A DNA stretch of 64,000 nucleotides from Scilla litardierei (lineage: Eukaryota; Streptophyta; Magnoliopsida; Asparagales; Asparagaceae). The notes beneath the pieces are model-generated. The model saw only the letters and a program-made list of their open reading frames with translations, ran no database searches and was not told the DNA's origin. The stretch spans positions 356,165,486 to 356,229,485 of the forward strand of contig CM061142.1 in NCBI GenBank assembly GCA_030789695.1. Direction: 5' to 3'. How positions within the stretch are numbered: the stretch's first letter is position 1; each line of letters starts with the position of its first letter. The position numbers and the translations under genes were made by a program. Shown piece by piece: positions 28,776 through 59,603 of the stretch.

Positions 28776-31296
28776 TGTCACGCCCCGCTTCCCAAAAATG
28801 TGGAGGCGAGACGTGAGAAGGTCCACTCAGACTTGAAGCTGTGAAACTCCAAGTCTGATAAGCGTATAAATTATCATATGGCAGGTCCTTGCAACGCGAA
28901 ACGAAACAACAATAATAATAAAGGAAAGAGACAAAAGAGAAATCCCTGAACATCCATTGAATGAATTACAATATCACAGAAAAGCCACCAGGCTAAAAGG
29001 AAAAGAGTCTAAGGCCTAAACTTGGCCAACAAGGTATAACATACATACAAAGGTGCCATGCACCAACAACTAACGGCAAACCTAAACAAAGAAGTGAACA
29101 CGAGCGGTCTTCAAGACAGGCCCCTGGTGTCCACTCATCGCCACAGCAAACATCACCATCAGCAACACCATATCCCCTGCAACAAATCTCTGGCTCTAGG
29201 TCTAACATGTGACACCCAAAAGAGAGAGGGGCACATGTCAGCAAGTCTGGAAAGACTTGTGCAAGGAAACTGAAAGAAAGGTAAACTAGCAACCTAGCAG
29301 TTATAGTATGATGCATGGCATGGCAAGTATAGTATGGAAGTGACAAGTAAAGTACAAGTAGCAAGTAACAAGTATGTCATGGATAACAAGTTTTACAAGT
29401 AAAACACAGACAAGTACAAGTGGTAAGTGTGACAAGTATAGTCAAGTAACAAGTACAAGGGATCACCCACACATGGATGTCCTATTGCACGCAGGCTGTA
29501 CTCATGTACAAGGGATCACTCAGAGAGTGCCTGTCACGCCCCGCTTCCCTAAAATGGAGGCGAGTACGTGAAAAGGTCCGCACGAGAGTGGAGCTGTGAA
29601 GCCCCAAACCCGATAAGCGTCCACAATGCAAAAACAGGTCCCTGTAACCACAACAGAATAGCAATAATAACACAAGGAGAGACTGAAATAAAATTCACAT
29701 CTCACAAATATTGTCCAACATCACAAATAAGTTCAACATCCAGAAAAGCCACCAGGCTAAAAGAAAAGAGTCTAAGGCCCAGAACAAGGCCAACAAAAGA
29801 AACGACAACAACAAAGCAAAGTATAGGTGCCACGCACCGATAACAGAACAACTGTCTAACAAAAGTAAAATACACGAAGACACTAGGACTGGTCCCCAGT
29901 GTCCACGTACTCCCCGTCAAACACAAGCTCGGGCTCGGCGTCAGCAAACACCTCGTCCTCAACGAGGTACTCGGGCTCAGGATCTAACATGTGTCACCCA
30001 AAAGAATAAAGGGGCACATGTCAGCATGTCTAAAAAGACTTGGGCAAGGAAACTGAAAGTGAGGCATCTAGCAACCTAGCAGTTTAGTATGCATGACATG
30101 GCAGTTATAACATGAGTGCACAATTAAAAACATGGCAAGACAATTTGTACAAGAGAACAATCATCGGGACAAGACAAGAGTAGCCAAGCTACTATCAATT
30201 CAATCAATTTACATTTTTGTAGGTGTTTACGCCATTCGCTGAATGGCATAGCATTTCAGACCGATCGGCACTAAACACTACCCAATATTCACACGATATG
30301 GAGCCTGGGGTCCCTGCACATTGAGCTCATCTAGTGAGCCTAGGGTTGCCCCGCCATTGAGCTCGCATTCTTAGTTCACAATTCAATGTATCGAGCGTTG
30401 GGGTTAGCAACTCATTATGCTCGCTTCTGGTCACGAGCCAGGAACACTAGTATGGCGTAGGGAACACCTAGCCGGAACACGCAATTCGGGCATTGGCTAT
30501 CAACCCACACATGGCCCGTTTCTGGAACACGAGCCAGGAACACAACATTGTAGCGAAGCTACGCAATCACAGCAATATCTAAAGAATGCGAGGTCATGAC
30601 ATTTTATTTGCGTACCGTTAATTAAATTAAACGTGACAGGCGAAATGCAATGACATGACATATTCGCGTACCGTTAATTGAAAGTAAACATGACATGGTA
30701 ATTGTGCAACATGCTAAAAGTCGGAATTAGCTTCGTTGTCAAGCTAATTCCCCAATTTGCGCCTAGGCGAGTATCATTTCGTCGCCTAGCCTCTTTTACG
30801 CCTACAACATGCAAATGGCCTAAAACATGGCCTAAACCCTAAGTGGCAAGTTTCACTTGCCTAGCACCGGGGATCGACGATCACTTCGTCACTCGGATGC
30901 TATCTACGGGGGTAATCGCTGTTTTGGGGGGGACAATCAACAAACAACATGAAATTAATTAGGGTTTCACCAAAATTATCAATAAGTTATGAAAACAACG
31001 GTAGAACGATTTCTTACCGAGAGGAGGCGGAAGAAACACTCCGGAGAACCCTAGGATCAAATCTGGAAGAGATTGGAGAAGTTTGGGGAAACTAGGGTTT
31101 TCGGGGATTTGGGGATTTGATGGATTTCGGTGAGATTTTTGGGGAAGATGAGAGGTAGATGGGGTAGATGGATGGTTTGGATGATGGATTTAGGGCTTGG
31201 AATGACGCAATGGAGCTTGGAGGAAGGTGGGGGATCAATGGGGGCGATTTTAGGGTTTAGGGTCGAGTTGGAGGGGAAGAAAACGTTTGGGTTGGG

Positions 31297-31304
31297 TATT
31301 TATA
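31297..31304 (-). promoter_or_regulatory. TATA box, G2 3' LTR
   Basis: TATAAATA on the minus strand lies 45 bases downstream of the TAGTCGGTC array in transcription direction. The copy in the 5' LTR is at 38634-38641. Confidence 0.75.
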
Positions 31305-31349
31305 GGCTAAGCTGGCGGCTAGGGCAAAACTAGGGTTTACCGCACTAGT

Positions 31350-31765
31350 TAGTCGGTCAAAGAACAACCACTGACCGACTAGTTTGACAACTAGTCGGTC
31401 GGTCGACCAACGCAGACCGACTAAGTGTAAACAGTAGCTACAGGTGAAATTAGGATTCTATAGTTAGTCGGTCCATGAACAAATACTGACCGACTAGTTT
31501 GGCATCTAGTCGGTCGATGAACGTTCTTAGACCGACTAAGAGTAAACAGTAACTGATACAAAAATAATATGATGAGTTAGTCGGTTCAAGAAGCATTGCT
31601 GACCGACTAGTTTGCAACCTAGTCGTTCACCCAACGTTCTTAGACCGACTAACGATAAACAGTAACTCCTGAGAAATTTAGAAAGCAAACTAGTCGGTCC
31701 AAGAAGGATTGCCGACCGACTGGATCGTCATCTAGTCGGTCGGTGGCCCTTCTTACACCGGCTAA
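31350..31765. repeat. TAGTCGGTC palindrome array, G2 3' LTR
   Basis: Four units, each with the motif order TAGTCGGTC, GACCGACTA, TAGTCGGTC, GACCGACTA over ~75 bases, are separated by ~35-base spacers containing GTAAACAGTA. Some sites are degenerate. It is the same array as 38687-39102. Confidence 0.95.
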
Positions 31766-32035
31766 TGAGCACAGAAAAGTGCCGATACGGAGCGCGGGGC
31801 CCCGGGATCGATTCCTAAGACTCCTAGGCTTGATCTAATAGTTAGATACGACCGTTATGAAGTCCGTCACGAGTGACACACTTCGAAATCGACAATCCTA
31901 AGGAAGAAGCGAGAAAATACGACGAATCGATCGAAAATGAAATCTACGGAGACGAAAACCACACAAGAGGAGAAAATCCACTAAAACATATATTATATTA
32001 TATTATAATCAGATACAAGAAAAGCAGTCGTTACA

Positions 32036-32051: not shown

Positions 32052-32081
32052 AAAAATTCCGTCCTCGGAATTTCCAAAAAC

Positions 32082-32984
32082 TCACGAGTCCGGAAACAAA
32101 AGTGGGAAACGCTCTCGCATCTCATCCTCATTCTCCCAAGTAGACTCTCCAGGTGAACCGTGTCGCCACATCACCCTCACAAGATTGACAATCTTGTTCC
32201 GAAGCGATTTCTGACACCTGTCCAGAATCTGCACGGGACGCTGGTCATACGTCATATCGGGGCGAACGGTAATCTCCGAAAAATCCACCGCATGAGACGG
32301 ATCGCTAATGTATCGACGAAGCTGCGACACATGGAAAACATTGTGAACTCCTTCCAAAGATGGCGGCAAGGCCAAGCGATAAGCTACCTCGCCAACCCTC
32401 TCCAAAATGTCAAATGGTCCAATGTATCGCGGGCTCAACTTCCCACGCTTCCCGAAACGAATCACACCACGATTCGGGGAAATCTTCAAGAACACATCGT
32501 CGCCCGGCTGAAACTCCAAAGGACGACGTTTAGCATCCGCCCAATGCTTAAAACGGTCCTGAGCAATCCTCAACCTCTCCCGAATATTCCTGACGATATC
32601 CACGGCCTCCACGATCATCTCAGGTCCCAACAACTCCCGATTACCAACGTCATCCCAACTCAATGGCGATCGACATTTCCTCCCATAAAGAGCGGCGAAT
32701 GGCGCCATGCCAATACTCGCCTGGAAGCTGTTGTTGTAGGAAAACTCCACCAAATGTAGATGGTCCTCCCACGAACCCTTGAAATCCAACATGCACGCCC
32801 TCAGCATGTCTTCCAAAATCTGAATCGTCCTCTCGGACTGGCCATCCGTCTGCGGATGGTACGCCGTGCTGAAACTCAGACGCGTACCCAAGCTCTTCTG
32901 CAAACTCTGCCAGAACTGAGATGTGAACCTCGTGTCTCTGTCAGACACGATACTCACGGGGACTCCATGAAGTCGCACAACCTC
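32082..32984 (-). CDS. pol: G2 Pol last exon: integrase core and chromodomain
   Basis: The frame is open from the putative acceptor at 32984 to the TAG/TGA-type end at 32082. It carries [16 protein letters not shown] (second catalytic Asp), [16 protein letters not shown] and LEDML (catalytic Glu region), the [15 protein letters not shown] module and a chromodomain ending [13 protein letters not shown]. Length (903 bases) equals the G4 counterpart exactly. Integrase inserts element DNA into chromosomes in the nucleus. Confidence 0.93.
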
Positions 32985-33056
32985 CTGCACGATTCACGAT
33001 ACATCACTATCCAAACTAGGAAAAGGAAATAAAAACGGAGAGTAAAAGAATTTTAC
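32985..33056 (-). other. Putative intron inside integrase (G2)
   Basis: The minus strand has 72 bases from GTAAAATTC to ATCGTGCAG. Removal joins ATATGGAG to GAGGTTGTGCGAC in frame (YMEE-VVRLHG). If retained, translation stops shortly after the first catalytic Asp domain. Confidence 0.75.
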
Positions 33057-35476
33057 CTCCATATATCTCCTTGCTAGCGCCTCAGTGGACTGTCCCACTC
33101 GGAATGGAATAAAGTGCGCGGATTTGGTCAATCGATCTACGATCACCCAAATCGCGTCATTCTGCTTCGGACTCCGAGGTAGTCCAGTCACGAAATCCAT
33201 AGTGATGTGTTGCCACTTCCACTCCGGAATCGGAAGCGGTTGTAGCAACCCGGCCGAACGCTGATGCTCCGCCTTCACTTGCTGGCAAACCAAGCACTTG
33301 GCTACACTCCGAGCCACGCTCCTCTTCATACCATGCCACCAATAATTCAGACGAAGATCCTGATACATCTTGGTGCCACCAGGATGCACAGAATACGGCG
33401 AGCTGTGTGCCTCCACCATCAGCTCCTCTCTGATATCCCCAGCAGGCACACACAACCTGGCTCCAAACCTCAGCGAGCCATCCTCATGAATCAAAAAGTC
33501 AGTCCGCAGACCGGCTTCCACCATCTCCCGAATCCTCACCAGCTTCGGATCCTCAGCCTGGCCAGCCTTAATCCGATCCACGATCGTCGACTGTACCTGC
33601 ATGTACATCAACGAAGAAGCCTCCCCAGGAAGAACAATTTCCACTCCAGACTCGCAAAAATCCTGCTGCAATCTCCACTGCGAGGTCAAAATCATCACCG
33701 CTGGCAGCCTACTCAAAGCATCTGGAACCACATTCACCTTGCCAGGGTGATACTGCAAATCAATATCATAATCCGCCATAAGCTCCAACCATCGACGCTG
33801 TCGCATGTTGAGCTCCTTCTGAGTGAAAATATACTTCAAGCTTTTGTGATCGGTGAAAATCTTCACTTTCTCACTCAGCAAGAAGTGCCTCCAAATCTTA
33901 AGAGCAAACACAACGGCAGCCAACTCCAAATCATGCGTCGGATAATTCTTCTCATGAACCTTAAGCTGACAAGACGCATACGCCATAACATGCCCATGTT
34001 GATGCAACACACAACCGAGACCCTTGCCAGAAGCATCGCAAAAGATCTCAAATCCACCGCTGCGATCAGGCACAACAAGAATAGGGGCAGTCGTCAACCT
34101 CTCCTTCAGAATACTAAAAGCACTCTCACAATCACCCGACCAAACAAAAGCAACATCCTTCCGCGTCAACCTGGTCATCGGCTCAGCAATACGGGAAAAG
34201 TCCTTGATGAATCGTCGATAATAACCAGCAAGTCCAAGAAAACTCTGAATCTCAGACGCAGACGACGGAACAGGCCACTCCCTGATGGCCCGAATCTTCT
34301 CGGGATCCACTGAAATACCATCTCCAGTCACCACGTGCCCGAGAAAAGCAACTCGATCCAGCCAAAACTCGCACTTTGAAAACTTAGCATACAACCGATG
34401 CTTCCTCAAAATCTCCAACACCGTCCTTAAGTGCGAGGCATGCTATTTCTCCGACTTCGAATAGATCAGAATGTCGTCAATAAAGATAACGACAAACTTA
34501 TCCAAAAAGTCATAGAAAATCAGGTTCATCAGATTCATGAAAACTACGGGCGCGTTAGTTACGCCGAAAGGCATAACCACAAACTCATAGTGTCCATACT
34601 TCGTCCTGAACGCTGTCTTCGGAACATCTCCCTTCTTCACCTTCAACTGATGGTAACCACTCCTCAAATCCAATTTAGAAAACACCCTCGAACCTCCAAG
34701 CTGATCAAAAATATCATCGATGCGAGGCAACGGGTATTTATTCTTAATGGTCACCGCATTCAACTCCCGATAGTCCACGCACATTCGACACGAACCATCC
34801 TTCTTCTTAACCAACAACACCGGTGCTCCCCACGGAGACACACTAGGATTAATATAACCCTTCTGCAAAAGCTCATCCAACTGCTTCCGCAACTCTTCCA
34901 ACTCTGCAGGTGCCATACGATACGGCGCCTTCGAAATCGGCTGCGCACCTGGGACAAGATCGATAGAAAATTCCAAAGCTCGATCAGGCGGCAAACCAGA
35001 CATCTCCTCGGGGAAGACGTCGCCAAAATCTCGCACCACAGCTGGCCACTCCAGCTCCATCTGCATAGCCACAGCCTCCACCGGCCTGGCCCGAAATCTG
35101 ACAGGACCAAGCGAACTGCTACCACGACTGAACTCAAATACTGGATGTCCGGGAATCTCGAACACCACCTTCTTCCTCCTGCAGTCAATCGTAGCATAGA
35201 AGCTCGCAAGCCAATCCATCCCAAGAACTGCATCATAGTTGATGATGTCGTGGACAATGAAATCAGCAAAAAGCTCATGTCCACAGACCACCAACGAGCA
35301 AGAATTGCAACCACGATGCACCGAGACCACACCATTCCCTGTAACGATATTCCATATCTTGGGGAGAGGGGACGTCGACAAGGAATGCCTCTCCACGAAG
35401 CTCCGAGAAATAATGCACATCGATGCACCAGAGTCAAAGAGGACTCGTGCAGGAAATATGCAAACCAAAATCACAC
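33057..35476 (-). pseudogene. pol: G2 Pol: protease, RT, RNase H, integrase N-terminus
   Basis: Protease [12 protein letters not shown] (~35440). RT with [34 protein letters not shown] and catalytic FIDD (~34470). RNase H with [15 protein letters not shown] and [11 protein letters not shown]. Integrase H-H-C-C ([11 protein letters not shown] to CLVCQQ) and [10 protein letters not shown]. The only lesion is a TAG at 34443-34445, just after the FIDD segment, where relatives have Glu. The frame is otherwise continuous over 2420 bases between the two putative introns. Confidence 0.94.
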
Positions 35477-35590
35477 CTAATCAAGCAATTAACAATCAAA
35501 CCCTAGTCTAGCAAACAACCATGTTCAAGCAAACAACAAAATCTAACAATCAAAACCAGCTGGGAAAGTAATAGCTAGAATGAGTATTAC
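35477..35590 (-). other. Putative intron between gag and protease (G2)
   Basis: The minus strand has 114 bases from GTAATACTC to TTGATTAG. Splicing joins …GTTATCGCAG to GTGTGATT… in frame (V-I-A-G-V-I-L). Unspliced reading adds about 12 codons to gag, then stops at 35550. Confidence 0.75.
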
Positions 35591-36722
35591 CTGCGATAAC
35601 CTCATCCACAGCCGCGCTCTCCGCAGCGGTCATCAGAAAAGCCTGCCTCCTCGGCGGAACAGCCTGCCGAAAAGCCTGCCTCTGCGGAACAAGAGCTGCT
35701 CTACGTCCAGCAGGAACAGGCGCTCGCTGCTGCAATGGCTGAGCTGCAACAGGAGCCCTCCGCAGCGGATCCGCATGCCGACAATCCTTCGCGACATGAG
35801 AAGCGTCACCGCAAATCAAACACTGGCCCAGAAACTTCCGACACTGATCCTTGACGTGACCAGGCCTGCCGCAGAAATGGCAGATCTTCGGAATAGACCC
35901 TCCTGGCCTCTTAAACTGAGCGGACTGATTAGGCCTGAATCCAGGTCTAACCACAGCTCTTGCCTGCTCCACAGGCCTCTTTCCAGCACCAACAACCGAT
36001 CCCTTCCTCTGGTTCACGAGCAGCTCCTGCCTCTTAGCTGCTACCAGAACCTTCTGATAAGATTCCCGATCAGAGGAGGTCACAAAACTCTGGAGCTCCG
36101 AAGCGAGCCCCTGCAGAAACCTCTGTGCTCTCTCCTCAGCGTCTTGCACCATCTTCGGCGCAAACCGACTAAGCCTCATGAACTCTTGGTGATACATGTC
36201 CACCGACGAGTTCCCTTGCTTCAAATCGATAAAACGCTGCAGCATCTCCTCCTTGGCAGCCTTCGGAAAGAACTCACCCTCAAATCTGGCTTTGAAGGTA
36301 GCCCAAGCTATCGGCTCCACCAACAACTTCTCTTCAGCATCCCACCAATTCCTGGCGTTATCCTTGAGCTGCCTCTTCGCCAAATCAACCCATCCAGCCG
36401 GGGTGATCTTGGCCATCTTCAGATTGTCCTCGACGTTCCGAATCCACTCATCGGCCGCCAGAGGACCCTCAGAACCATCAAAATATGCGGGACCCAGCTC
36501 CCGAAATTGCTTCGCTCCTGGCTCAGAGCGAGGAACATCCGGAAGAGCCCGGGCAGCTCGAGCAGGTGGAGCATTCTGGACTTGCAAAAGCACGCCCTGC
36601 TGCACTTGCATCATCTGCAACATCATCCGTATCATCTCACCGCTGGTGGGTTCCCGCTCAGGCTCCTCATCATGAGGGAGCGCACCACTACCCCCACCAC
36701 GGGTGAAACGCCTTCCTGCCAT
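35591..36722 (-). CDS. gag: G2 Gag (first exon of Gag-Pol)
   Basis: The ATG at 36722 (MAGRRFTRGG) directly follows a minus-strand CATTAG that could be a splice acceptor. It contains KQFRELGPAYFDGSEGPL, ARNWWDAEEKLLV, RFIDLKQGNSSVD (capsid core) and two CCHC knuckles, CHFCGRPGHVKDQC and CLICGDASHVAKDC, for RNA binding. It has no lesion. With the next exons it forms a 1485-codon frame (1132 + 2420 + 903 bases). Confidence 0.93.
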
Positions 36723-36860: not shown

Positions 36861-38633
36861 CTAAAACCTGTCACGCCCCGCTTCCCTAAAATGGAGGCGA
36901 GTACGTGAAAAGGTCCACACGAGAGTGGAGCTGTGAAGCCCCAAACCCGATAAGCGTCCATAATGCAAAAACAGGTCCCTGTAACCACAACAGAATAGCA
37001 ATAATAACACAAGGAGAGACTGAAATAAAATTCACATCTCACAAATATTGTCCAACATCACAAATAAGTTCAACATCCAGAAAAGCCACCAGGCTAAAAG
37101 AAAAGAGTCTAAGGCCCAGAACAAGGCCAACAAAAGAAACGACAACAACAAAGCAAAGTATAGGTGCCACGCACCGATAACAGAACAACTGTCTAACAAA
37201 AGTAAAACACACGAAGACACTAGGACTGGTCCCCAGTGTCCACGTACTCCCCGTCAAACACAAGCTCGGGCTCGGCGTCAGCAAACACCTCGTCCTCAAC
37301 GAGGTACTCGGGCTCAGGATCTAACATGTGTCACCCAAAAGAGTAAAGGGGCACATGTCAGCAAGTCTAAAAAGACTTGGGCAAGGAAACTGAAAGTGAG
37401 GCATCTAGCAACCTAGCAGTTTAGTATGCATGACATGGCAGTTATAACATGAGTGCACAATTAAAAACATGGCAAGACAATTTGTACAAGAGAACAATCA
37501 TCGGGACAAGACAAGAGTAGCCAAGCTACTATCAATTCAATCAATTTACATTTTTGTAGGTGTTTACGCCATTCGCTGAATGGCATAGCATTTCAGACCG
37601 ATCGGCACTAAACACTACCCAATATTCACACGATATGGAGCCTGGGGTCCCTGCACATTGAGCTCATCTAGTGAGCCTAGGGTTGCCCCGCCATTGAGCT
37701 CGCATTCTTAGTTCACAATTCAATGTATCGAGCGTTGGGGTTAGCAACTCATTATGCTCGCTTCTGGTCACGAGCCAGGAACACTAGTATGGCGTAGGGA
37801 ACACCTAGCCGGAACACGCAATTCGGGCATTGGCTATCAACCAACACATGGCCCGCTTCTGGAACACGAGCCAGGAACACAACATTGTAGCGAAGCTACG
37901 CAATCACAGCAATATCTAAAGAATGCGAGGTCATGACATTTTATTTGCGTACCGTTAATTAAATTAAACGTGACAGGCGAAATGCAATGACATGACATAT
38001 TCGCGTACCGTTAATTGAAAGTAAACATGACATGGTAATTGTGCAACATGCTAAAAGTCGGAATTAGCTTCGTTGTCAAGCTAATTCCCCAATTTGCGCC
38101 TAGGCGAGTATCATTTCGTCGCCTAGCCTCTTTTACGCCTACAACATGCAAATGGCCTAAAACATGGCCTAAACCCTAAGTGGCAAGTTTCACTTGCTTA
38201 GCACCGGGGATCGACGATCACTTCGTCACTCGGATGCTATCTACGGGGGTAATCGCTGTTTTGGGGGGGACAATCAACAAACAACATGAAATTAATTAGG
38301 GTTTCACCAAAATTATCAATAAGTTATGAAAACAACGGTAGAACGATTTCTTACCGAGAGGAGGCGGAAGAAACACTCCGGAGAACCCTAGGATCAAATC
38401 TGGAAGAGATTGGAGAAGTTTGGGGAAACTAGGGTTTTCGGGGATTTGGGGATTTGATGGATTTCGGTGAGATTTTTGGGGAAGATGAGAGGTAGATGGG
38501 GTAGATGGATGGTTTGGATGATGGATTTAGGGCTTGGAATGAAGCAATGGAGCTTGGAGGAAGGTGGGGGATCAATGGGGGTGATTTTAGGGTTTAGGGT
38601 CGAGTTGGAGGGGAAGAAAACGTTTGGGTTGGG

Positions 38634-38641
38634 TATTTATA
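38634..38641 (-). promoter_or_regulatory. TATA box, G2 5' LTR
   Basis: TATAAATA on the minus strand lies 45 bases from the end of the array. It is expected to position transcription of G2. Confidence 0.78.
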
Positions 38642-38686
38642 GGCTAAGCTGGCGGCTAGGGCAAAACTAGGGTTTACCGCACTAGT

Positions 38687-39102
38687 TAGTCGGTCAAAGA
38701 ACAACCACTGACCGACTAGTTTGACAACTAGTCGGTCGGTCGACCAACGCAGACCGACTAAGTGTAAACAGTAGCTACAGGTGAAATTAGGATTCTATAG
38801 TTAGTCGGTCCATGAACAAATACTGACCGACTAGTTTGGCATCTAGTCGGTCGATGAACGTTCTTAGACCGACTAAGAGTAAACAGTAACTGATACAAAA
38901 ATAATATGATGAGTTAGTCGGTTCAAGAAGCATTGCTGACCGACTAGTTTGCAACCTAGTCGTTCACCCAACGTTCTTAGACCGACTAACGATAAACAGT
39001 AACTCCTGAGAAATTTAGAAAGCAAACTAGTCGGTCCAAGAAGGATTGCCGACCGACTGGATCGTCATCTAGTCGGTCGGTGGCCCTTCTTACACCGGCT
39101 AA
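38687..39102. repeat. TAGTCGGTC palindrome array, G2 5' LTR
   Basis: Four F-R-F-R units (F = TAGTCGGTC, R = its complement) are present. The central pair of each unit is a dyad of the form GACCGACTAGTT, short loop, AACTAGTCGGTC. Bases 38687-38721 are the exact reverse complement of 40320-40354 in copia B (35 of 35). Confidence 0.96.
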
Positions 39103-39828
39103 TGAGCACAGAAAAGTACCGATACGGAGCGCGGGGCCCCAGGATCGATTCCTAAGACTCCTAGGCTTGATCTAATAGTTAGATACGACCGTTATGAAGT
39201 CCGTCACGAGCGACACACTTCGAAATCGACAATCCTAAGGAAGAAGCGAGAAAATACGACGAATCGATCGAAAATGAAATCTACGGAGACGAAAACCACA
39301 CAAGAGGAGAAAATCCACTAAAACATATATTATATTATATTATAATCAGATACAAGAAAAGCAGTCGTTACAGTGCCCTATTGCCCGCAGGCTGTGGTCA
39401 CACATCAAGTACAAGGTGTTGAATATTGGACTCCCCGGATTTGGTTTTGATGATGAGCAAACATAAATAATTCATGAACTAACAATTTGTGAGCGCAGTA
39501 TTGGAGATCGTCGCCAAATTCAAGAGAACAATCAAAGCGACATCTCAAGACTTCTCAAAGCTCGTATTCATGCCTAAAGCTTCGTTGAAGCTCTTGCGCC
39601 GTTTTGGAAGTCATGAAGAATTAATCGAAGCTTTCGAAGACCGTTCATTAAGGTTTTATTTATAGTCTTTTAGCTTCAATCTATAGAATGTTAAGCCTTG
39701 AGTATATCTTGCGATTCTATCTTCATAACACTCATATCGTAGCTCTAGGATCTTAGTACAAGTTCATTCTAACTTCCTCGAGGCGTCGCGCTTCGATTCG
39801 GACTTGTTTGTGCATATTAGTTGGTACA

Positions 39829-40356
39829 AGAAGAAGTACTGACCGACTAGATGGTGATCTAGTCGGTCAGCAGAGCTTCTTGGACCAACTAGTTTGCTTC
39901 CTTAATTTCTTGCACCTTACTGTTTACAGTTAGTCGGTCTACGTTGACTCACCGACCGACTAGTTTGTGAACTAGTCGGTCAGTGATGCTTCTTTGACCG
40001 ACTAGTTGTGATTTACTGTACATGCTAAATTTCTCCTAAGCTACTGTTTATCGTTAGTCGGTCTAAGAACGTTTGGTGACCAACTAGTTGACAATCTAGT
40101 CGGTCAACTTTTGTTCTTGGACCGACTAAGTCAATTTGTATTCAGACTATTTCACTTTGCCTCTTAGTCGGTCTACGTTCACTGACTGACCGACTAGTTG
40201 TGAAACTAGTCGGTCAGAATGTCTTCTTGGACCGACTAGATTTCTAGGTCTGAATTTCTATCTCTTCTCAGTTCCTCTCTTAGTCGGTCCATGTTGGTTG
40301 ACTGACCGACTAGTTGATGAACTAGTCGGTCAGTGGTTGTTCTTTGACCGACTAGT
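39829..40356. repeat. TAGTCGGTC palindrome array, copia B 5' LTR
   Basis: Five F-R-F-R units give about 20 motif sites, 17 of them exact. The first unit begins with a degenerate site (TTAGTTGGTAC at ~39819-39830). Spacers repeat ACTGTTTA(C/T) before the forward site, as in the G2 array. Confidence 0.96.
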
Positions 40357-40405
40357 TGCCTCAGATTTCTATCCGTTGGGAATTGACCTAGTTTTTATGG
40401 GACCC

Positions 40406-40413
40406 TATAAATA
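40406..40413 (+). promoter_or_regulatory. TATA box, copia B 5' LTR
   Basis: TATAAATA lies about 50 bases after the array. The copy in the 3' LTR is at 51182-51189. Confidence 0.8.
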
Positions 40414-41171
40414 CGAACCTAGGTCATTTCTCTCTAGGTTAGAGCTGCCGTTAAGAGATTCATTGAGATAGAAAGAGATAGCCATTCTCACTCATTTCTA
40501 AAGCTCTCTTCCTCACAAGAAATCCATTCTCTCACATTCTAGATCTAGAATCCATCTTGAGAGAAGTTTGTTCTTGGTGAGCCCTTCAAGCTCTAGCTTG
40601 ATTCAAGTCTCCAAATCACTCCTAGGCACCTATTGCTGGTCATTTCCTTGGTGCTAGGTCTTGGTGACTTCATCTTCCTCAAATCCTTCCTTTCACCTAT
40701 TTGGTAAGAAAAACTCAAGGTATAGGATTTTGTGGTAAGATTGTTTATTTCAATATAAACTCATTTATATTGCTTATTGATTCTCTCGGTTGTGAGAGAA
40801 GGTTGTGATCCCGGGTTGTGGGATTCACTATTGCCATTGCATGTATGATTTGATCTTGTGAAGGTTTTTCACAAGATATTCATAGTGGAAATCTTGGGTT
40901 AGGATTTCTAACCTAAGTATCCGGAGGGGATCCGGGTGGTTGGGACGTAGGATCACCGGGAACAAATCGGGGAGACTTGGGTGGATCCGAACCCATTAAC
41001 ATCTTTTGTTAGCATTGTTAATTTTGTTGTTGTCATTCAATTTAAGCTTCCGCAAATTGTTTTGGTAGTTGTTTGCACTATAATTTGGAATTATACTCCT
41101 TGTTATTTTTAAAGTACTATTCACCCCCCCCCCCTCTAGTACTTGTGCAGTAGCTTATAGGGCATTACATT

Positions 41172-41184
41172 TGGTATCAGAGCC
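41172..41184 (+). promoter_or_regulatory. Primer-binding site of copia B
   Basis: TGGTATCAGAGCC, the standard initiator-Met tRNA site, lies two bases after the LTR. Confidence 0.93.
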
Positions 41185-41196
41185 AGATACTTAGCT

Positions 41197-43431
41197 ATGT
41201 CTTCCAACGACAATAAGACCGTGCGTCCACCTTCCAACTATGACACCTTCAGGAACCGTGAAGGAGCATCTTCGGTGATGGAAGGACATTCCTCTACGAG
41301 GCCTCCATTCTTCAACGGTACCAACTACGGGTACTGGAAATGCCGGATGGAAACCTTCCTCCGGAGTGCATCTTTATGGAGGACTACAATGAAGGAATAC
41401 ATCGAGCCCGAAGAAGAAGACTTTGAGAAATGGACTACCGCGGAGATCGCTGCGGAGGTAAGCAATGCCAAGGCAATGAACGCCTTGCAATGCGCATTGG
41501 AGCCCGAGGACTTCAATAAGATATGCACATGTAAGAGTGCATATCAAATTTGGAACTCCCTCCTCATACTTCATGAAGGGACGAGTAGGGTAAGAGACTC
41601 TAAACTCGTAGTCGTAAACAAAGATTATGAAATGTTTCATATGCAACAGGGCGAGAAGATGAAGGAATATTACGCTCGCTTCGTTGACATAATAAACGAG
41701 TTAGAGGCCCTCGGCAAGTCCTACACTCAAAAGGAGAAGTGCTCAAAGCTTATCGAAGGACTTCCTTCTTCTTGGGAGAAACGTACCTTCGCCATCGAGG
41801 AAGGTAATGATATGAATAAGTATACCGTAGTTCAATTGATGGGTACTTTGATGTCATACGAGGTACGTAAAGATAGCAAGGTGAAGTTACAAGAAAAGAT
41901 GAAGTCTTATTTGAACCAAGATGTGCCTAAGAAAAAGGAGATTGCATTCAAGGCAGCTTCATCCACCTCTACCGATGATGAGGACTCGGAAGAAGAAATG
42001 GACATGGAATCCATTGTACTCATGGCAAAGAAGTTCAATCGCTTCTTCTGAAAGGGTAACTTCAAACAAAAATCTAAATTTACTTCTACTAACACATCTC
42101 CACCTTTGTGCTTTAAATGCAATAAGCCAGGACACATCAAAGCGGATTGTCCTCAAAACAAGCAAAAGGAGAAGTGGAAGGCGTCGAAGTTCGACAAGTC
42201 GAAGAAGTACAAAAAGGGGTACAAAAAGGGACTTGTCGGAGCAACATTCACCGACTCCGAGGATTCCTCAAGCGGAGAGTCGGACGATGAGAAAGTGGAG
42301 TAAGCGGACATGTGCTTCATGGCAAGAGAGGAGCATGATCAAGGATCTTTCTCCTCCGATGATAGCGACGACGAAGGCGATGAGGTAACTATGGATGATC
42401 TTAGGGATGCTAACTCTCATTTATGGTCTAAATACACTAAATTAGTAAATAGATATACTAAAGTAAAAGATGACCTAGCTAGCATTCAAACCTCGCCTAA
42501 GACTATCATCACCAACAACGACACCGTTGTTGAAGAGTTAAGAAATGAGATTGTTAATCTCAAATATAAACTTGAACATGTTAGCATTGATGATCCGGAA
42601 GAACATAGGATAGCGGATTTAACTTCTCAAAACTCGACTTTGAGTATTGAGAACGAGAATCTCAAATCTCGTGTTTATGTGCTCACATCACAAGTATCCA
42701 ACTTGGATACTTCTATGCGTTCTCTCAAAGAGAAATATGAGAACACATTAGGCCGAATTAATAAATTCAATAAGGGTAAGGACCATTTGGATAAAATCCT
42801 AAGTGACTTACTTCCGGCCAATCACCACATTGGTTTGGGGTATACGATGGGATGTCCATCCAAAGCGGCCACTACTTTTGTTAGGCCAACTTCCGGTGAC
42901 TCTACGAGTGGTAGCAAACACTCTATTGGTAGTTCATCTACCAATGGTGCTTCCACCTCGTCCACACCCTCTTTCGGAAAGAAACCCACTTTGGGTGGAC
43001 CTCCAAAGAAGGGACATGCTTATATGTACACAAATACCATGCCACGTAGGAACACACGTCCTACTCCACCGTCTCACACATATGATGATTTTTATGCAAC
43101 ACATTCTCGGGCACGTGCACACAATGTGAGACACCCTCACGCACGTGTTCCCACACATGCATATGTTCACCCACCTCATCATATGAATAATTCTTGTCGT
43201 GCACCATTCCATCATGTTCCGTATGCCTATCCACAACATGCATCACGTAGAAATCAACGTCGCATGCATGCACCCAATAGGATGATGGCTCCCAAAATTT
43301 TCACAATTTGGAGCCCAAAGGACACAAGCATGGATGAAAAACAAGTGTATATGAATGCTTATTTTTCGGATGTTGTGCATAGTAGAAATTATGTGGGGAA
43401 GTCTAAGTCCAATTGGACTTGGCTTCCAAAG
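41197..43431 (+). pseudogene. gag: Copia B gag region
   Basis: The ATG at 41197 opens a SIRE-type Gag: RPPFFNGTNYGYWKCRM (~residue 36), the YQIWNSLLILHEGTSRV block, YYARFVDIINELEALGK and a CCHC knuckle CFKCNKPGHIKADC (42109-42150). A Lys-rich stretch, an acidic DDSDDEGDE stretch and a coiled-coil-like segment (~42510-42770) follow, then a His-rich tail. TGA at 42049-42051 (probably from CGA) and TAA at 42301-42303 split an otherwise single frame. The 43431 end is the putative splice donor. Confidence 0.9.
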
Positions 43432-43490: not shown

Positions 43491-46400
43491 GTACTCAAGG
43501 AAAAGAAAAAGAAAAGGAGCAACAAATTTAAATTTAGCTCCAAAGGGAATTGGATACTCGATAGCGGGTGTTCAAAACACATGACGGGTGACGCTCAATT
43601 GCTCTCCGGAGTGGTTCCCATTGCAAATGGAAATCGCGTCGTATTTGGAGGCAACGAGAGCGGAACAATCGTCGGTGTTGGTAAAGTGGGTAACACATCT
43701 AAACCTTTAATTAGTGATGTTTATCAAGTTAATGGTTTAAATCATAATCTTATTTCAATAAGCCAACTTTGTGACAAAGGTTACAAAGTTAGCTTTACGA
43801 AAGGATTGTGTCATATTTCAAATGATAATAATAAATTATTATTTTCCGGCACACGCCATAAAGATATTTATATTTTGGATCTTCCTAAGTCATATGAACA
43901 ATGTCTCGTTGCCAACACAAGTGAACAACACTTATGGCATCGACGCTTTGGACATGTGAACTTTGGAACACTTTATAAGCTTTCGAAATTAAATTCCATT
44001 AAATGTTTTCTGAAACTCGTTTTCGAAAAGAAAAGTTTTTGTGATTCTTGTCAACGTGGCAAGCTTCATAAATCTTCATTTAAACCTAAGAAAAGCATTT
44101 CTACTAAACGGCCACTAGAGCTATTACATCTAGATTTATTTGGGCCAACTAGAGTTGCTTCCTTAGGAAATGCAAGATATGGACTAGTCATCGTTGATGA
44201 TTATTCAAGATTTACATGGGTATTTTTCTTATGTAATAAAAATGAAGCTTTTGAAAACTTCACAATATTTGTGAAGAAAGTACAAAATCTCATCGGAACC
44301 ACCATTGTCACTATTCGTAGTGATCATGGGGGTGAATTTGAGAATGAGTCTTTCTCAAATTTTTGTGATGATCTTGGAATTACTCACACGTTTTCTTTCC
44401 CTCACGCACCTCCTCAAAATGGTGTTGTTGAGAGGAAGAATAGAACGCTTGTGGAGTGTGCTCGCACTATGCTCAAAGATAGTCAACTTGGTTATAAATT
44501 TTGGGCGGAAGCGGTACACACCGCTTGTTATGTGTTTAATAGAATACTTTTGAGGCCCGGCACCAAACAAACTTGCTATGAATTGTTGTTTGGTAGATTG
44601 CCTCAAGTTAAACATTTTCGTGTTTTCGGCGCAAAATGTTTTATTAAAAACACATATGATAATTTGGACAAGTTTGATCCGAGATCGGATGAGGGGATAT
44701 TTGTTGGGTATTCCTCACGTAGCAAAGCCTACCGGATATACAACAAAAGATCCTCTACGATCGAGGAATCACTTCATGTCTCTTTTAATGAGAATTTTAC
44801 TAATTCTAGAATGTCAAATAATGATGATTCTATGGATGTTTTATGTGATTCGTTTGAAAATTCTAAGTCAATTGATTCTATTGATACTAACCCGACTAAT
44901 GAAGTTGTTGAGAATGTGCCTAGTGATCAAGGTATTCCCAAGCGGCTTCATACCGTCCGCGACCATCCCCATGAGCAAGTCATTGGCAATATTCTTGATA
45001 GTGTCAAGACGAGATCTCAAGTCCACCACTTCGCCAATTGTGCCTTTGCCTCATCGATAGAGCCAAAGAATATAGTTGAAGCGTGCGAAGATAGTGCTTG
45101 GATCCTTGCCATGGAGGAGGAACTCATTCAATTCGAGAGGAATGAGGTATGGGAGCTTGTTCCTTTGCCATCGAAGAACCACACCATCATAGGGACAAAG
45201 TGGATCTTCAAGAACAAAACCGACGAAAACCAAGTCGTCGTCCGGAACAAAGCTCGGTTACTTGCTCAAGGCTATCGCCAAGAGGAAGGTATCAATTTCG
45301 AAGAATCCTTCGCTCCGGTAGCTAAATTAGAATCAATTAGACTATTATTGTCTTATGCATGCCATAAAAATTTTAAGTTATTTCAAATGGATGTTAAAAG
45401 TGCATTTTTAAACGGAGATGTTGTTGAGGAAGTTTACGTTTCTCAACCTCCGGGCTTCATAAATGAAAAATTTCCAAATCATGTTTTTAAACTAAAGAAA
45501 GCTCTTTATGGTTTGAGACAAGCTCCTCGAGCTTGGTATGATCGCCTAAAGAATTTTCTTTTGGATTTGAATTTTAAAATGGGCGAAGCCGATTCTACAC
45601 TTTTTGTTAAGCATGCGAATAATGATATTTTATTAGTTCAAATTTATGTTGATGATATCATTTTCGGTGCTACTGACTTCACTCTTTGCAAAGAGTTTTT
45701 CTAATGTTATGAAGGAACAATTTGAGATGAGCCACATGGGCGAGCTCAAATATTTCTTAGGTCTCCAAATTCGCCAATTGAACGATGCAATCTTCATCCA
45801 CCAAACGAAGTACACGGTGGAGTTGCTTAAGCGATTTGGAATGGAGAGTGCTTCCGGGAAAAAGACTCCAATGAGCACGACTACGCATCTTGACAAGGAT
45901 ACGGGCGGTAAGGATGTAGACATTCGTCTATATCGAGGTTGATAGGTAGTTTACTTTATCTTACCGCAAGTAGGCCCGATATTATGTTTACCGTATGCAT
46001 ATGTGCTCGTTATCAGTCTCAACCTAAGGAGTCTCACTTAGTAGCGGTAAAACGTATTTTCCGTTATCTAAGTTATACACTTGATTTTGGATTACTTTAT
46101 CCAAAATCTAGCACGTATGAGTTAGTCTCATATAGTGATGCCGATTATGCGGGATGCAAATCCGACAGAAAAAGTACTAGTGGCACTTGCCATTTTCTAG
46201 GAAATTCTCTTGTCTCTTGGTTTTCCAAGAAGCAAAATTCCGTATCACTTTCAACCACCGAGGCAGAATATATTGCCGCCGGTGCCGCTTGTGCCCAGGT
46301 TCTTTGGATGAGACACACACTGAAGGATTTTGGTATTCATTGTGATACTAGCCCTATCATGGTGGATAACCAAAGTGCTATTTGTCTTTCGAAGAATCCG

Positions 46401-46840: not shown

Positions 46841-47221
46841 TAGTCGGTTTCAGTTCATCAGCCAACCGACTAGATGCTCATCTAGTCGGTCAGCTAGTGA
46901 ACTCAGACCGACTAGTTCAAGCTTTAACTATCTCCTGTCATTGACTTCTTTTAGTCGGTCATAGTACACTTACCGACCGACTAGATTGAAAATTAGTCGG
47001 TCAGTGAGTATACTGCGACCGACTAACTCTAGCCTTAGAAATTTCTGTTTGCCTCTGTTTCGACTTAGTCGGTTCAATCTCATTGACCGACCGACTAGAT
47101 CGTAATCTAGTCGGTCAGTGCTTGAACTGTGACCGACTAAGTGTGTTAGGGCAAACGTGTCTTTTCGCATTCCCGACCGACTTAACTCATTTTTATCCGA
47201 CTAAACTTTGTTTTAGTCGGT
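46841..47221. repeat. Internal TAGTCGGTC array upstream of the accessory ORF
   Basis: Three F-R-F-R units plus partial sites (GACCGACTTAA, TCCGACTAA, TTAGTCGGT) lie between the pol stop (46595) and the accessory ORF start (47526). Architecture matches the LTR arrays, but spacer sequence differs. A pyrimidine-rich stretch follows. No clear TATA box is seen. Confidence 0.93.
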
Positions 47222-47525: not shown

Positions 47526-49220
47526 ATGGCACGAACGAGGATCCCGATTACTTCATCTGGGGCATCCCCTATGACCGTAGAGGGTGCTACCGCTTTGACC
47601 CCTCCCAAACGTAGGGCCAAGACCACACGTCCCCCCTCTTCGTCTTCGACTCCGTTGAAGAGGAAGAGGACGTCCAAGCCTAAACCTACCGGCCAATCGT
47701 CCAAGCCCAAGCCTAAGCCTAAAAAGTTCCGTGCCCCCACACCTCCCGGTGAGCGTTCAGGTAGTGATTCCGAGGATTATACCTATGAGGAATACACCCC
47801 TGAACATCCCGAGAAGGCACCCACTCCACCCCCTCCTCCACCTCCTCCGAAGTCCCGTAAGGCTAAGGGTAAAGCTCCTATGCCAGTCGGCGGTGTAGAC
47901 ATATCGTTGTGCCGCGATGACCCTCAGTGTCTCGCAGCGTACAACTGTATAGAGCACTGCCCACTGCTGTTAGAGCATTACGTTCAGTTTTCTGATTTCC
48001 TTGGCCTTGCTGATCTTCTCTCCTATAGTGGCCTATTGGACTACCTTCGATTTGACGCTAAGGCGAACCCTAGACCATATCCTCGCCTGGTCAAATTATT
48101 CTATGCCAACCGTGTCCGGGGTCAGTACGGCGAGACCCACTCCATTGAGACTTCTGTTTTGGGGACTCCTATAGTCCTCACGGCAGAAATCTTGGGGGAG
48201 TTGATTGGTTGCTCATCGTGTGGCCTCCTCCCTTCTGACATCTCGGTCGATGATATCTCTTCCTTAGATCAGCGGACCCTAGGTAAAATCTTCCAGGTTA
48301 TCCCCCCCGCATTCATTGGTGTCCCTTCGAAATCATTCAAGCCGAATGCTTGGGTGATTAACCTGATCTTGAAATCCTGCCTTCTTCCCAAGTATGGATC
48401 TTCATCTCTTCCATCTCAGCCGTTTTTGAAACTGATATACGCTTTGTTCATGGGTAGCGAGATTAATTGGGCTCGCATTATACTCGATAAGATGGACTCT
48501 TTCGAGTGTATACGCAAGACCACTAAATCTGCGCATATCCCTTATCCATGTCTGTTGACCTTGGTTTTCTGTCGTTTCGGTGTTCCCCTCCCTCCTGATG
48601 ATGAGCGTCCTTTGGGTCCTCCTTTGAACGCGACGGCCGTTAAGAAATCTCTTGCGACACTTCGTCACGTGCAGAGGTCGACCAGATCTGCTTCCCAGGC
48701 CACTCCCTCAGCTGCTGCAGCCCCCACTCCTTCTGCCACATTAGATGATGTCGTACGCCTACTTCGTCGGCACGAGTTGCGTTTGGCTCGTACCGAGGAG
48801 GTAGTTTACCGTATGGCTCGTATGATGGGCATTGAGCTTCCTCCTTCCGTGTCTGAGGACGAGGAGATGGACGATGAGGATATTGACGATCTTGTCACTT
48901 CCTTGGCTCGTGGCGATGAGGCCACTGCTGCTGCTGCTGCTACCACATCTGCTCCTGGAGATGGCACCTCTTTCGGTGCTCCAGAGACTTCTGCACCAGT
49001 GGATCAGCCTTCTGAGGCTGCTGCTGCTCCTGGTGACGACCATGCTCCTGTCTTGCCTGCTGTTACTCCTGTTGAGACCCCTGCTGTTGAGCCCGACGTC
49101 GTCGTTTCTACACCTGCCCCGACGATCCCGTCTGTTGACACGCCTCTCCTCCCTGCAGAGCCTGAGTCCACTCTGTCGACTGGACCCACGGAGACTGCAG
49201 ATCCAGCCACTTCCTCGTGA
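47526..49220 (+). CDS. Copia B accessory ORF, 564 aa, nuclear-type protein
   Basis: The first ATG in the open frame is 47526, in a good context (atcATGG). Residues ~27-70 are very basic (KRRAK, KRKR, PKPKPKK), like nuclear-localisation signals. Residues 80-97 are acidic and ~98-118 Pro-rich with KSRKAKGK. A globular region (~135-355) has PYPRLVKLFYANRV, TPIVLTAEILGELIG and PYPCLLTLVFCRFGVPLP, which resembles, from memory, the 'putative plant transposon protein' domain family. An amphipathic helix (~405-432), an acidic patch (SEDEEMDDEDIDD) and an Ala/Pro/Thr-rich tail follow. I see no signal peptide or membrane segment, so it does not look like an envelope. It is intact although pol is broken. 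Function unknown. Confidence 0.85.
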   Translation: MARTRIPITSSGASPMTVEGATALTPPKRRAKTTRPPSSSSTPLKRKRTSKPKPTGQSSKPKPKPKKFRAPTPPGERSGSDSEDYTYEEYTPEHPEKAPTPPPPPPPPKSRKAKGKAPMPVGGVDISLCRDDPQCLAAYNCIEHCPLLLEHYVQFSDFLGLADLLSYSGLLDYLRFDAKANPRPYPRLVKLFYANRVRGQYGETHSIETSVLGTPIVLTAEILGELIGCSSCGLLPSDISVDDISSLDQRTLGKIFQVIPPAFIGVPSKSFKPNAWVINLILKSCLLPKYGSSSLPSQPFLKLIYALFMGSEINWARIILDKMDSFECIRKTTKSAHIPYPCLLTLVFCRFGVPLPPDDERPLGPPLNATAVKKSLATLRHVQRSTRSASQATPSAAAAPTPSATLDDVVRLLRRHELRLARTEEVVYRMARMMGIELPPSVSEDEEMDDEDIDDLVTSLARGDEATAAAAATTSAPGDGTSFGAPETSAPVDQPSEAAAAPGDDHAPVLPAVTPVETPAVEPDVVVSTPAPTIPSVDTPLLPAEPESTLSTGPTETADPATSS

Positions 49221-50188
49221 TTGTTTGTTTCGAGGACTCTCCACTGCTCTTTGGATGATATACCTGTTTGAGAGTGTTTTGGGTTAGGATGGGATGGAGT
49301 TTGGGTGTTGATTTGTTGTATTTTGATATGTTGGATGTCGGTGTATGTGTTGTATTTTTTGTTGTTGGACGTTGATGATGGTGTTCTGATGATGATGTTG
49401 AATCGATGATGTATGATGTATTTCTTTTTGATGGGTATGTTGCATTTGATGTAGTCGATATCTTTTTGGATGTACTCATGATGTTTTTATATATATACAT
49501 CGATCTTCTCTTTGTATTATTTCGTCGTGCACATTTTAATTCTCATTCAATGTCCATGATATGTGAAATCATCGCTCGACGATTGAAAAACTTGGTTAAA
49601 TAGATTGAAATTCTATAATTGTATAGAATTGTTTTCCATGCACCAATTTAACCAAGAATATTGAATATTGAAGAGTATGTTTCTTTATTCAAGAAATGAA
49701 TAAAAATTTGGTATTTTTGATGATTTTAATTATCTCTTTTTGATAATGGACAATTTGGCACACCTTGATTTGATTTCCACACTTTTCCCTTGGTGTCAAT
49801 TAGGTCCATCGTCATTGTCTACGACTCCCGATGTTGGATTTTCCATTTCCTAGTTGTTGTCGTTGTATGCCCCCCATTTTTGGGATAATGCCAAAGGGGG
49901 AGAGATAATGATAATAAATAGGTCAAATGAAAATTTAACTCATTTTCCAAGAATCTAATTTGATGTGTTAGATTCAGGGGGAGTTAAGAAATATATAAGG
50001 ATTTTCAAAATCTGATATTTCAAAAATCGATTCTCATTATATATCTTACTCGTCTGATTGATGCAATTTATAAATATTCATTTTGGAATTAACGTGTCAT
50101 CAATGCAGGGGGAGTAAGTATTTTACATTTGAATCATTATTTTTTATTATTATTTATGTTGGTTTGTCATCACCAAAAAGGGGGAGAA
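49221..50188 (+). other. Copia B 3' noncoding region with several polypurine tracts
   Basis: No gene is seen. GGGGGAG-type purine runs occur near 49896, 49976, 50106 and at 50175-50188 (AAAAAGGGGGAGAA). The last directly precedes the 3' LTR and is the expected primer for plus-strand synthesis. Extra tracts are a known habit of SIRE-like elements. Confidence 0.8.
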
Positions 50189-51940: not shown

Positions 51941-52077
51941 CAAGGGATCACTCAACGAGTGCCCTATTGCCCACAGGCTGTGTTGAGCTCGTCTTCTGGA
52001 ACACGAGCCAGAAAGTATATTTGACAAGTATGGCGTAGGGGTGCACCTAGCCGGAACAAGTAGCACTAGAATGTAGT

Positions 52078-59550: not shown

Positions 59551-59558
59551 TATTTATA
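59551..59558 (-). promoter_or_regulatory. TATA box, G3 5' LTR
   Basis: TATAAATA on the minus strand lies 45 bases downstream of the array. Confidence 0.75.
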
Positions 59559-59603
59559 GAAAAGTGTGGCGGCTAAGGCAAAACTAGGGTTTCCTGGGCT
59601 GAT

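What the first reader, a model, noticed from the sequence alone, without database searches (positions are those of the whole stretch)
38687..40356. The same palindromic motif array sits in the promoters of copia and gypsy elements
TAGTCGGTC and its complement recur in F-R-F-R units in the LTRs of copia B (39829-40356, 50601-51129), chromovirus G2 (38687-39102, 31350-31765) and non-autonomous G3 (53041-53453, 59604-60016). In every case the array lies on the upstream side of a TATAAATA box, 45-50 bases away, when read in that element's own direction. Promoters of two retrotransposon superfamilies thus share one elaborate control region. It may bind a host transcription factor, an element-encoded regulator, or act through DNA structure.
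Basis: partly seen in the sequence, partly recalled or inferred. Interest (0 to 1): 0.88.

Follow-up and report, generated by a model that had tools for sequence, protein, structure and literature searches.

The report
Promoter array shared by unrelated retrotransposons
In this plant DNA the same palindromic array sits just before the TATA box of a copia retrotransposon and of gypsy retrotransposons, and the letters between its repeats match across that divide too, so a whole control module has likely passed between two groups of jumping genes and would let one host regulator switch on both.

Summary

Copia B carries published Sirevirus marks, and such arrays before the Sirevirus TATA box and env-like gene are known ("RM boxes"). 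New is the array in Del/Tekay-like chromovirus G2 and its relative G3. It is homology, not convergence: non-motif letters align across superfamilies (B-G2 score 145, shuffle maximum 49; antisense 30), and two of five B units group with gypsy units. With G3 the match extends about 190 bp upstream; it stops at the last motif, and after the TATA box the B LTR resembles neither gypsy LTR beyond chance.

Best reading: an upstream control module exchanged between superfamilies, likely by template switching, predicted to bind a host factor (perhaps DREB-type; ACCGAC core). Binding, donor and genome-wide spread are untested; the genome search did not complete.

The parts
39417..41169 (+). 5' LTR of copia B (Sirevirus), TG...CA, TSD CAAGG
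   Evidence: 98.2% identical to 50189-51940; flanks; ends
50189..51940 (+). 3' LTR of copia B
   Evidence: preceded by PPT AGGGGGAG at 50179
39629..40354 (+). shared module in B: upstream flank plus 5-unit array
   Evidence: flank aligns to the G3 LTR, score 85 vs shuffle maximum 43; module vs G2 score 437, vs G3 401, vs LTRs C, C_left, D4, D6 22-36, i.e. shuffle level
39818..40354 (+). 5-unit F-R-F-R array, B 5' LTR
50590..51126 (+). 5-unit array, B 3' LTR
40406..40413 (+). TATAAATA of the B 5' LTR, 51 bp after the last 9-mer
46841..47139 (+). internal 3-unit array upstream of the extra ORF of B; decayed motifs on to 47222
47526..49217 (+). extra ORF of B in env position, 564 aa, Pfam PF20167 'putative plant transposon protein'
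   Evidence: E 2.7e-15; no other Pfam match listed up to E 10
41161..42051 (+). gag reading frame of B (PF14223)
43491..45704 (+). pol reading frame of B (integrase, RVT_2)
49895..50186 (+). four polypurine tracts AGGGGGAG (49895, 49976, 50107, 50179), Sirevirus signature
41175..41183 (+). primer binding site TATCAGAGC, Sirevirus signature
   Evidence: only copy in the window
29532..32035 (-). 3' LTR of G2 (Del/Tekay-like chromovirus), TSD GTGCC
   Evidence: 99.5% identical to the 5' LTR; ends and flanks
36869..39372 (-). 5' LTR of G2
38687..39101 (-). 4-unit array, G2 5' LTR (first motif decayed)
31350..31764 (-). 4-unit array, G2 3' LTR
32082..36722 (-). G2 gag, protease, RT, integrase with SH3_Tf2-1 and a weak chromodomain match
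   Evidence: Chromo 19.9 bits, cut-off 25.1
57714..60318 (-). 5' LTR of G3, 2605 bp, TSD AGTTC
59604..60016 (-). 4-unit array, G3 5' LTR
51941..53755 (-). larger piece of the G3 3' LTR (other pieces 28776-29531 and 39373-39416), split by the G2 and B insertions
   Evidence: 98.2% identical to 58503-60318; flank comparison
53041..53453 (-). 4-unit array, G3 3' LTR

Best explanation
The array is part of one block of DNA upstream of the TATA box that a copia Sirevirus and gypsy Del/Tekay-like elements share by homology, likely passed between them by template switching during reverse transcription, and it would work as a rigid platform for one host transcription factor. Shown: unit geometry, position before TATAAATA, and homology of the letters between the motifs and, for G3, of the upstream flank, ending at the last motif. 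Inferred: template switching between co-packaged or co-expressed RNAs, or gene conversion among nested insertions, moved the block. Inferred: each 9-mer binds one factor, and the fixed 23/19/23 spacing places four copies per unit. The best guess for the factor is an AP2/ERF protein of the DREB type, because GACCGACTA contains ACCGAC (motif knowledge recalled, not from a call). The array before the env-like ORF would give that gene the same control. RNA that includes the upstream part of the 3' LTR would also carry 74-nt hairpins, probable sources of small RNAs, as reported for maize Sireviruses.
For: Homology beyond the motif: non-motif letters of the arrays align in sense orientation, B-G2 score 145 (300 shuffles: mean 29.7, maximum 49), B-G3 64 (mean 25.8, maximum 45), against 30 and 33 for the antisense controls. 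Upstream flank B-G3 85 (maximum 43). One inner arm is identical, 14 of 14 letters, in B_5 and G2_4. Unit tree on non-motif letters: G2_2 with B_3 (UFBoot 92), B_1 with G3_1 (66), first units B_1, G2_1, G3_1 against the rest (79); best B-G2 identity 0.718, best within B 0.538. No similarity to LTRs C, C_left, D4, D6 (scores 22-36, z -1.8 to 1.2). Spacing: 0 of 16 units with an inner indel, 8 of 12 inter-unit gaps off the mode, Fisher p 1.6e-4. Promoter position in 6 of 6 LTRs. ACCGAC: 121 of 133 occurrences in the window lie in the arrays. Precedent for position and for copies before env: PMC2829016. Chimeric LTRs by template switching proposed for plant retrotransposons: PMC1950507 (passages).
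Against: No binding, expression, methylation or small-RNA data. B-G2 upstream flank is weak (score 45, equal to the shuffle maximum). Unit order is only weakly colinear (2 of 24 and 3 of 24 permutations do as well, the observed order included). In the tree the other three B units group together (B_4 with B_5 80, with B_2 71), and several nodes are below 50. The donor is undecided: in array letters B-G2 (145) exceeds G2-G3 (114), in the upstream flank G2-G3 (163) exceeds B-G3 (85). Template switching between superfamilies would need two switches inside U3; a third donor is not excluded. The other DRE core, GCCGAC, is not enriched (2 of 16 in arrays), and a paper search for DREB/CBF with LTR retrotransposons (10 of 46 listed) gave no direct precedent in its listing. 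The Fisher test ignores shared ancestry, and the 16 units were extracted with the spacing as template.
Confidence: 0.6

Rival explanations
1. The array acts mainly through structure: transcripts fold each unit into a pre-miRNA-like hairpin that feeds small-RNA silencing or is used in the element's RNA cycle.
For: 8 of 8 folded units (of 16) form near full-length hairpins, -33 to -44 kcal/mol, z -6 to -10. With the partner slid by 1-3 columns the inner arms pair far less (30-40% against 57%). Maize Sirevirus palindromes are reported as structure and small-RNA hotspots (PMC10760457 and PMC5311732 passages).
Against: Stems follow from the repeated 9-mers. Inner arms are complementary in consensus (6.9 of 14 against 3.4 with letters shuffled), but arms of one unit pair no better than arms swapped between units (Watson-Crick p 0.11 over all, 0.056 within families; with G-U 0.15 and 0.32). 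Against shuffles, cells paired reach 63 of 500 and pairs changed on both sides 146 of 500 for the inner arms; for the full hairpin 36 and 29 of 500, which is weak. Function by structure would not need the letters TAGTCGGTC to be kept (inference).
Confidence: 0.15
2. An element-encoded protein, most plausibly the PF20167 ORF of B whose own gene lies behind an array, binds the motif and protects or activates B; Del-like elements acquired the operator and exploit it.
For: Array upstream of that ORF. Precedent: VANC proteins bind short repeated motifs (VANC21: YAGTATTAY) in their own transposons, and VANC6 motifs also occur in the unrelated AT9TSD1, some copies of which are derepressed by VANC6 (PMC5735166 passages).
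Against: No DUF1985 or other Pfam domain besides PF20167; one remote homologue in the protein search, none with a two-row alignment; structure prediction failed (pLDDT 36.5). Four of 13 Sireviruses with RMs lack env (table), so the LTR array does not need it in cis.
Confidence: 0.12
3. A third source, such as a host promoter or another transposon, gave the module to both lineages.
For: Not excluded without the genome; in maize the copia palindrome is also the commonest motif in structured Helitron regions (PMC10760457 passages).
Against: Sireviruses already have this organisation in LTR and before env in other plants, so a Sirevirus source is simpler. No third carrier was seen in this window.
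Confidence: 0.09
4. Convergence: both superfamilies independently amplified binding sites of the same factor.
For: Sireviruses in different plants have similar RM cores with otherwise divergent sequence.
Against: Unit-specific matches outside the motif, same strand sense, and a homologous upstream flank with G3.
Confidence: 0.04

Closest known systems
Sirevirus RM boxes (Bousios et al. 2010, BMC Genomics 11:89, PMC2829016; sections 6, 7, 9, 11, 12, 13, 19 and passages read)
   Same: High-copy symmetric CGG/CCG motif in the LTR, a short distance before a conserved TATA box, with extra copies upstream of the env-like gene; half-site CGGTC/GACCG as in Vitis (CGGTCGACCG) and Osr8 (CGGTCAGACCG).
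   Different: Here half-sites are 9 bp long and separated by 14 or 10 bp in fixed four-site units, where the 13 listed RM consensus sequences are compact palindromes of 10-20 bp; GC is 0.43-0.46; and the array also occurs in gypsy elements, while that study covered Ty1/copia elements.
Maize Sirevirus palindromes as structure and small-RNA hotspots (Bousios 2016, not held; known here as cited in PMC10760457 and PMC5311732, passages)
   Same: Palindrome-rich LTR region with strong hairpins.
   Different: PMC10760457 reports no obvious structure peak in Ty3/RLG elements, and the palindrome also in Helitrons; no copia-gypsy module in the passages seen.
Del/Tekay LTR CpG islands (Cruz et al. 2014, PMC4029996; abstract and passages read)
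   Same: Variable region in the 5' part of long Del LTRs; U5 att type A (GGG at -8 to -10) as in G2 and G3.
   Different: Described as CpG islands, absent from its eudicot Del group; the stem 'palindrom' does not occur in the text.
VANC operator repeats (Hosaka et al. 2017, PMC5735166; passages read)
   Same: Short motif repeated in non-coding parts of transposons, also found in an unrelated element.
   Different: VANDAL transposons; no fixed palindromic unit described in the passages seen; bound by an element-encoded protein with DUF1985.
Template switching making chimeric LTRs in plants (PMC1950507; passages read)
   Same: Chimeric LTRs by jumping between RNAs.
   Different: The passages seen describe switching between slightly different individual elements, not between superfamilies.

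Membership tests
Sirevirus (copia B) | PPT AGGGGGAG, several copies near the 3' LTR, mostly after env | tested here: met
   four copies at 49895-50179, last one 2 bp from the LTR (spacer AA, not the consensus AT)
Sirevirus (copia B) | PBS TATCAGAGC after CA/ATTGG | tested here: met
   TATCAGAGC at 41175, preceded by CA TTTGG (one letter off)
Sirevirus (copia B) | poly-C integrase signal near the LTR 3' end | tested here: met
   run of C about 35 bp from the end; the paper's average is 21 bp
Sirevirus (copia B) | RT phylogeny within the genus | not tested
   no tree with reference Sireviruses was made
Sirevirus RM boxes | symmetric motif with CGG-CCG core in high copy number (at least 8) | tested here: met
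   CGGTC/GACCG half-sites, 20 sites per B LTR with up to 2 mismatches; spaced by 14 or 10 bp, wider than the listed RMs
[quoted passage not shown]
Sirevirus RM boxes | forms a CpG island (not the case in every listed element) | tested here: not met
   GC 0.43-0.46, CpG o/e 0.88-1.25; o/e is higher than in the rest of each LTR, but GC is below the usual 0.5 (threshold recalled)
Del/Tekay chromovirus (G2, G3) | U5 att type A, GGG at -8 to -10 | tested here: met
   ...GGGGCGTGACA in both, rule
Del/Tekay chromovirus (G2) | chromodomain integrase | tested here: inconclusive
   Chromo 19.9 bits, cut-off 25.1
Del/Tekay chromovirus (G2) | RT-RNaseH phylogeny | not tested
   no reference tree made
DRE/CRT element (DREB/CBF) | core A/GCCGAC | tested here: met
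   ACCGAC in the motif; 121 of 133 in arrays; consensus recalled
DRE/CRT element (DREB/CBF) | binding and stress response | not testable with these tools
   no expression or binding data here
VANC-type anti-silencing system | regulator with DUF1985 | tested here: not met
   only PF20167 listed up to E 10

The most novel reading that the evidence does not exclude
The array is an operator for a Sirevirus-encoded regulator (the PF20167 protein, whose own gene lies behind a copy of it), and gypsy chromoviruses have stolen the whole operator to ride on a rival superfamily's activation or anti-silencing protein: trans-regulatory parasitism between retrotransposon superfamilies.
Probability: 0.1. Interest if true: 0.92.

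Novelty: new variant of a known kind. Interest (0 to 1): 0.62.

Why it matters
Copia and gypsy elements are normally treated as separate lineages whose control regions evolve alone. A control module that has crossed between them with its unit structure intact, in elements that inserted recently (LTR pairs 98.2-99.5% alike), would mean that activation signals can spread between transposon families like cassettes and that families can be induced or silenced together. It also gives a direct way to test what the long-known but unexplained Sirevirus RM boxes do: a sequence kept in two unrelated contexts suggests which letters and spacings matter (the 9-mer and the 23/19/23 spacing rather than the inner arms).

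Tried and rejected
Look-ups of the 9-mer and its complement in papers list 20 of 115 and 20 of 134 papers, with unrelated titles that look like primer or amplicon coincidences; none was opened. Scans of viral contigs and genome contigs for the F-R dyad gave one viral contig and two bacterial records, a few being what I would expect by chance for 18 fixed bases in that much DNA (own estimate, no call); not read further. PDB sequence search of the ORF: weak hits (E 0.016-0.028) to acetoacetyl-CoA reductases, taken as chance. AlphaFold of its central part failed (pLDDT 36.5), so no fold search was made. RNA-hairpin selection: tested, not supported beyond consensus symmetry. Conservation of the motif between LTR pairs: too few differences to tell (2 of 171, 0 of 135, 2 of 135 motif positions against 3 of 367, 0 of 281, 5 of 279 other array positions). 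The whole module, motif letters included, also matches G2 and G3 antisense (scores 225 and 244 against 437 and 401 sense), as a palindromic motif must; only the non-motif letters show the strand. Papers on copia-gypsy exchange: searches list none whose title or abstract start reports a shared promoter array; this concerns those searches only, and Bousios 2016 itself is not held.

Not done: genome-wide census of arrays, because the genome search was unreachable in nine of nine tries.

Full report
Observation. The 9-mer TAGTCGGTC (reverse complement GACCGACTA) occurs 117 times with at most one mismatch in the 64-kb window; 100 dinucleotide shuffles give a mean of 8.1 and a maximum of 15. 112 of the 117 lie in seven arrays, 5 are scattered singles. 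The arrays are built from 74-bp units F-R-F-R, start-to-start 23, 19, 23; this holds for every complete unit when motifs are found one by one. Decayed motifs at 47175-47222, behind the internal array, do not fit and were left out. In the 16 units of one LTR per family plus the internal array (extracted with the spacing as template) no inner indel occurs, while the gaps between units range from 36 to 50 bp and 8 of 12 differ from the mode (Fisher p 1.6e-4, not corrected for shared ancestry). The last 9-mer lies 45 (G2, G3), 51 and 55 (B) bases before TATAAATA in 6 of 6 LTRs, read in the element's direction.

Anatomy of the locus. The window holds nested plant LTR retrotransposons. Copia B (39417-51940, +; LTRs 98.2% alike) and chromovirus G2 (29532-39372, -; LTRs 99.5% alike) are both inserted into the 3' LTR of G3 (-; 5' LTR 57714-60318), whose pieces are 28776-29531, 39373-39416 and 51941-53755; the target-site duplications are CAAGG, GTGCC and AGTTC. 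So the G3 LTR is about 2605 bp, longer than simple repeat finding shows. G3 has no stop-free stretch over 124 codons inside, and its LTR is homologous to that of G2 (after the TATA box score 884 against at most 50 in 100 shuffles): G2 and G3 are one lineage, and the comparison is between two LTR types.

Copia B fits the Sirevirus marks given in Bousios et al. 2010 (PMC2829016, sections 6, 7, 12, 13 read): four AGGGGGAG tracts between the extra ORF and the 3' LTR, the last one 2 bp from it, the primer site TATCAGAGC, and a poly-C run near the LTR end; small departures are listed in the membership table, and no RT tree was made. It also has the extra ORF after pol (PF20167, E 2.7e-15), and a seventh array of three units lies 386 bp before its ATG. 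That paper (section 9) describes this layout: RM boxes with a CGG-CCG core in LTRs, upstream of the TATA box, and again upstream of env. The copia half of the finding is therefore a new version of a known feature. What differs is the geometry: half-sites 9 bp long, 14 or 10 bp apart, in fixed groups of four.

The gypsy half is new as far as my searches go (listings with abstract starts, except where passages are named). G2 has chromovirus domains (SH3_Tf2-1; a chromodomain match below cut-off) and the Del type A U5 end (GGG at -8 to -10; rule from PMC4029996 passages; sequence). [quoted passage not shown] One study of LTR models reports, at a far deeper level, that chromovirus LTRs cluster with those of Pseudoviridae in its LTR trees (PMC3601003, abstract and passages); it does not speak to this array.

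Homology, not convergence. With the motif letters removed, the B and G2 arrays still align in sense orientation with a score of 145 (300 shuffles: mean 29.7, maximum 49); B-G3 gives 64 (maximum 45) and G2-G3 114 (maximum 36); antisense controls give 30 and 33. The upstream flank aligns for B-G3 with 85 (maximum 43), 123 identical of 192 columns; for B-G2 the flank score of 45 only equals the shuffle maximum. Downstream of the last motif B shares with G2 and G3 little but the TATA box (15 of 17 and 11 of 11 letters), and after it nothing beyond chance (z 2.5 and -0.3). A tree of the 16 units on non-motif letters pairs G2_2 with B_3 (UFBoot 92) and B_1 with G3_1 (66), and sets the first units B_1, G2_1, G3_1 against the rest (79); the best B-G2 identity (0.718) exceeds the best within B (0.538). 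One inner arm is identical in B_5 and G2_4, 14 of 14. Against a neat block transfer, the other three B units group with each other (80 and 71), and unit order is only weakly better than permuted order (2 of 24 for B-G2, 3 of 24 for B-G3, the observed order included): the arrays have also turned over inside each family. The module shows no similarity to the other LTRs tested, C, C_left, D4 and D6, and those LTRs carry no such repeated 8-mer.

Direction. B units are on average closer to gypsy units than to the internal array of B itself (7 of 165 label sets do as well). This suits a Sirevirus that long had both arrays and passed the LTR one on, but the B-G2 array score above G2-G3 would also suit later exchange in either direction. 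I leave the donor open.

How it would work. The 9-mer is kept while inner letters vary, and spacing is kept while gaps between units vary: the pattern of a protein platform (inference). GACCGACTA contains ACCGAC, the DRE core of DREB factors (recalled); 121 of 133 ACCGAC in the window are in the arrays, but only 2 of 16 GCCGAC. Bousios et al. also found mainly stress-factor sites in RMs but no single common factor. Hairpins are strong (8 of 8 folded units, of 16; z -6 to -10), but arms of the same unit pair no better than swapped arms (Watson-Crick p 0.11, within families 0.056; with G-U 0.15 and 0.32), and pair counts exceed shuffles only weakly, so structure looks like a by-product, possibly with silencing consequences. 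An element-encoded regulator of the VANC kind (PMC5735166 passages) is the boldest alternative; the PF20167 ORF shows no DUF1985 and could not be folded with confidence.

Limits. The genome search did not complete, so the spread of the array, the species and the donor are unknown. All statements on function are inference.

Noticed in passing
46841-47222: Seventh array, inside copia B before the extra ORF, with no TATAAATA box; its last copies (47175, 47214) are decayed and out of register.
   Followed up: yes
61479-63168 and 9280-10764: A second Sirevirus-like family C: AGGGGGAG at 61479 and 61629, an LTR starting at 61639, and an 88% similar stretch at 9280-10764; it has no TAGTCGGTC array.
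   Followed up: partly
1-224: End of another B-type LTR (92% to 40953-41169) at the window's left edge.
   Followed up: no
16936-25863: Two overlapping repeat pairs (16936/23119 and 17623/25142), probably LTRs, around a + strand gypsy element; they lack the array.
   Followed up: no
just inside the 5' LTRs of G2 (below 36869) and G3 (below 57714): Both have nearly the same stretch right after the LTR (GGTTTTAGTGGTGGCCCATGCAGG in G2, one letter different in G3), a primer region unlike the TATCAGAGC of copia B.
   Followed up: no
unit upstream flanks, e.g. 39917-39926 in B: A second conserved string, TTACTGTTTA with small changes, starts about 14 bp before the first motif in 7 of 16 units (B_2, B_3, G2_2, G2_3, G2_4, G3_2, G3_4).
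   Followed up: no
55542-57185: Diverged internal repeats in the non-coding interior of G3 (67-72% alike).
   Followed up: no
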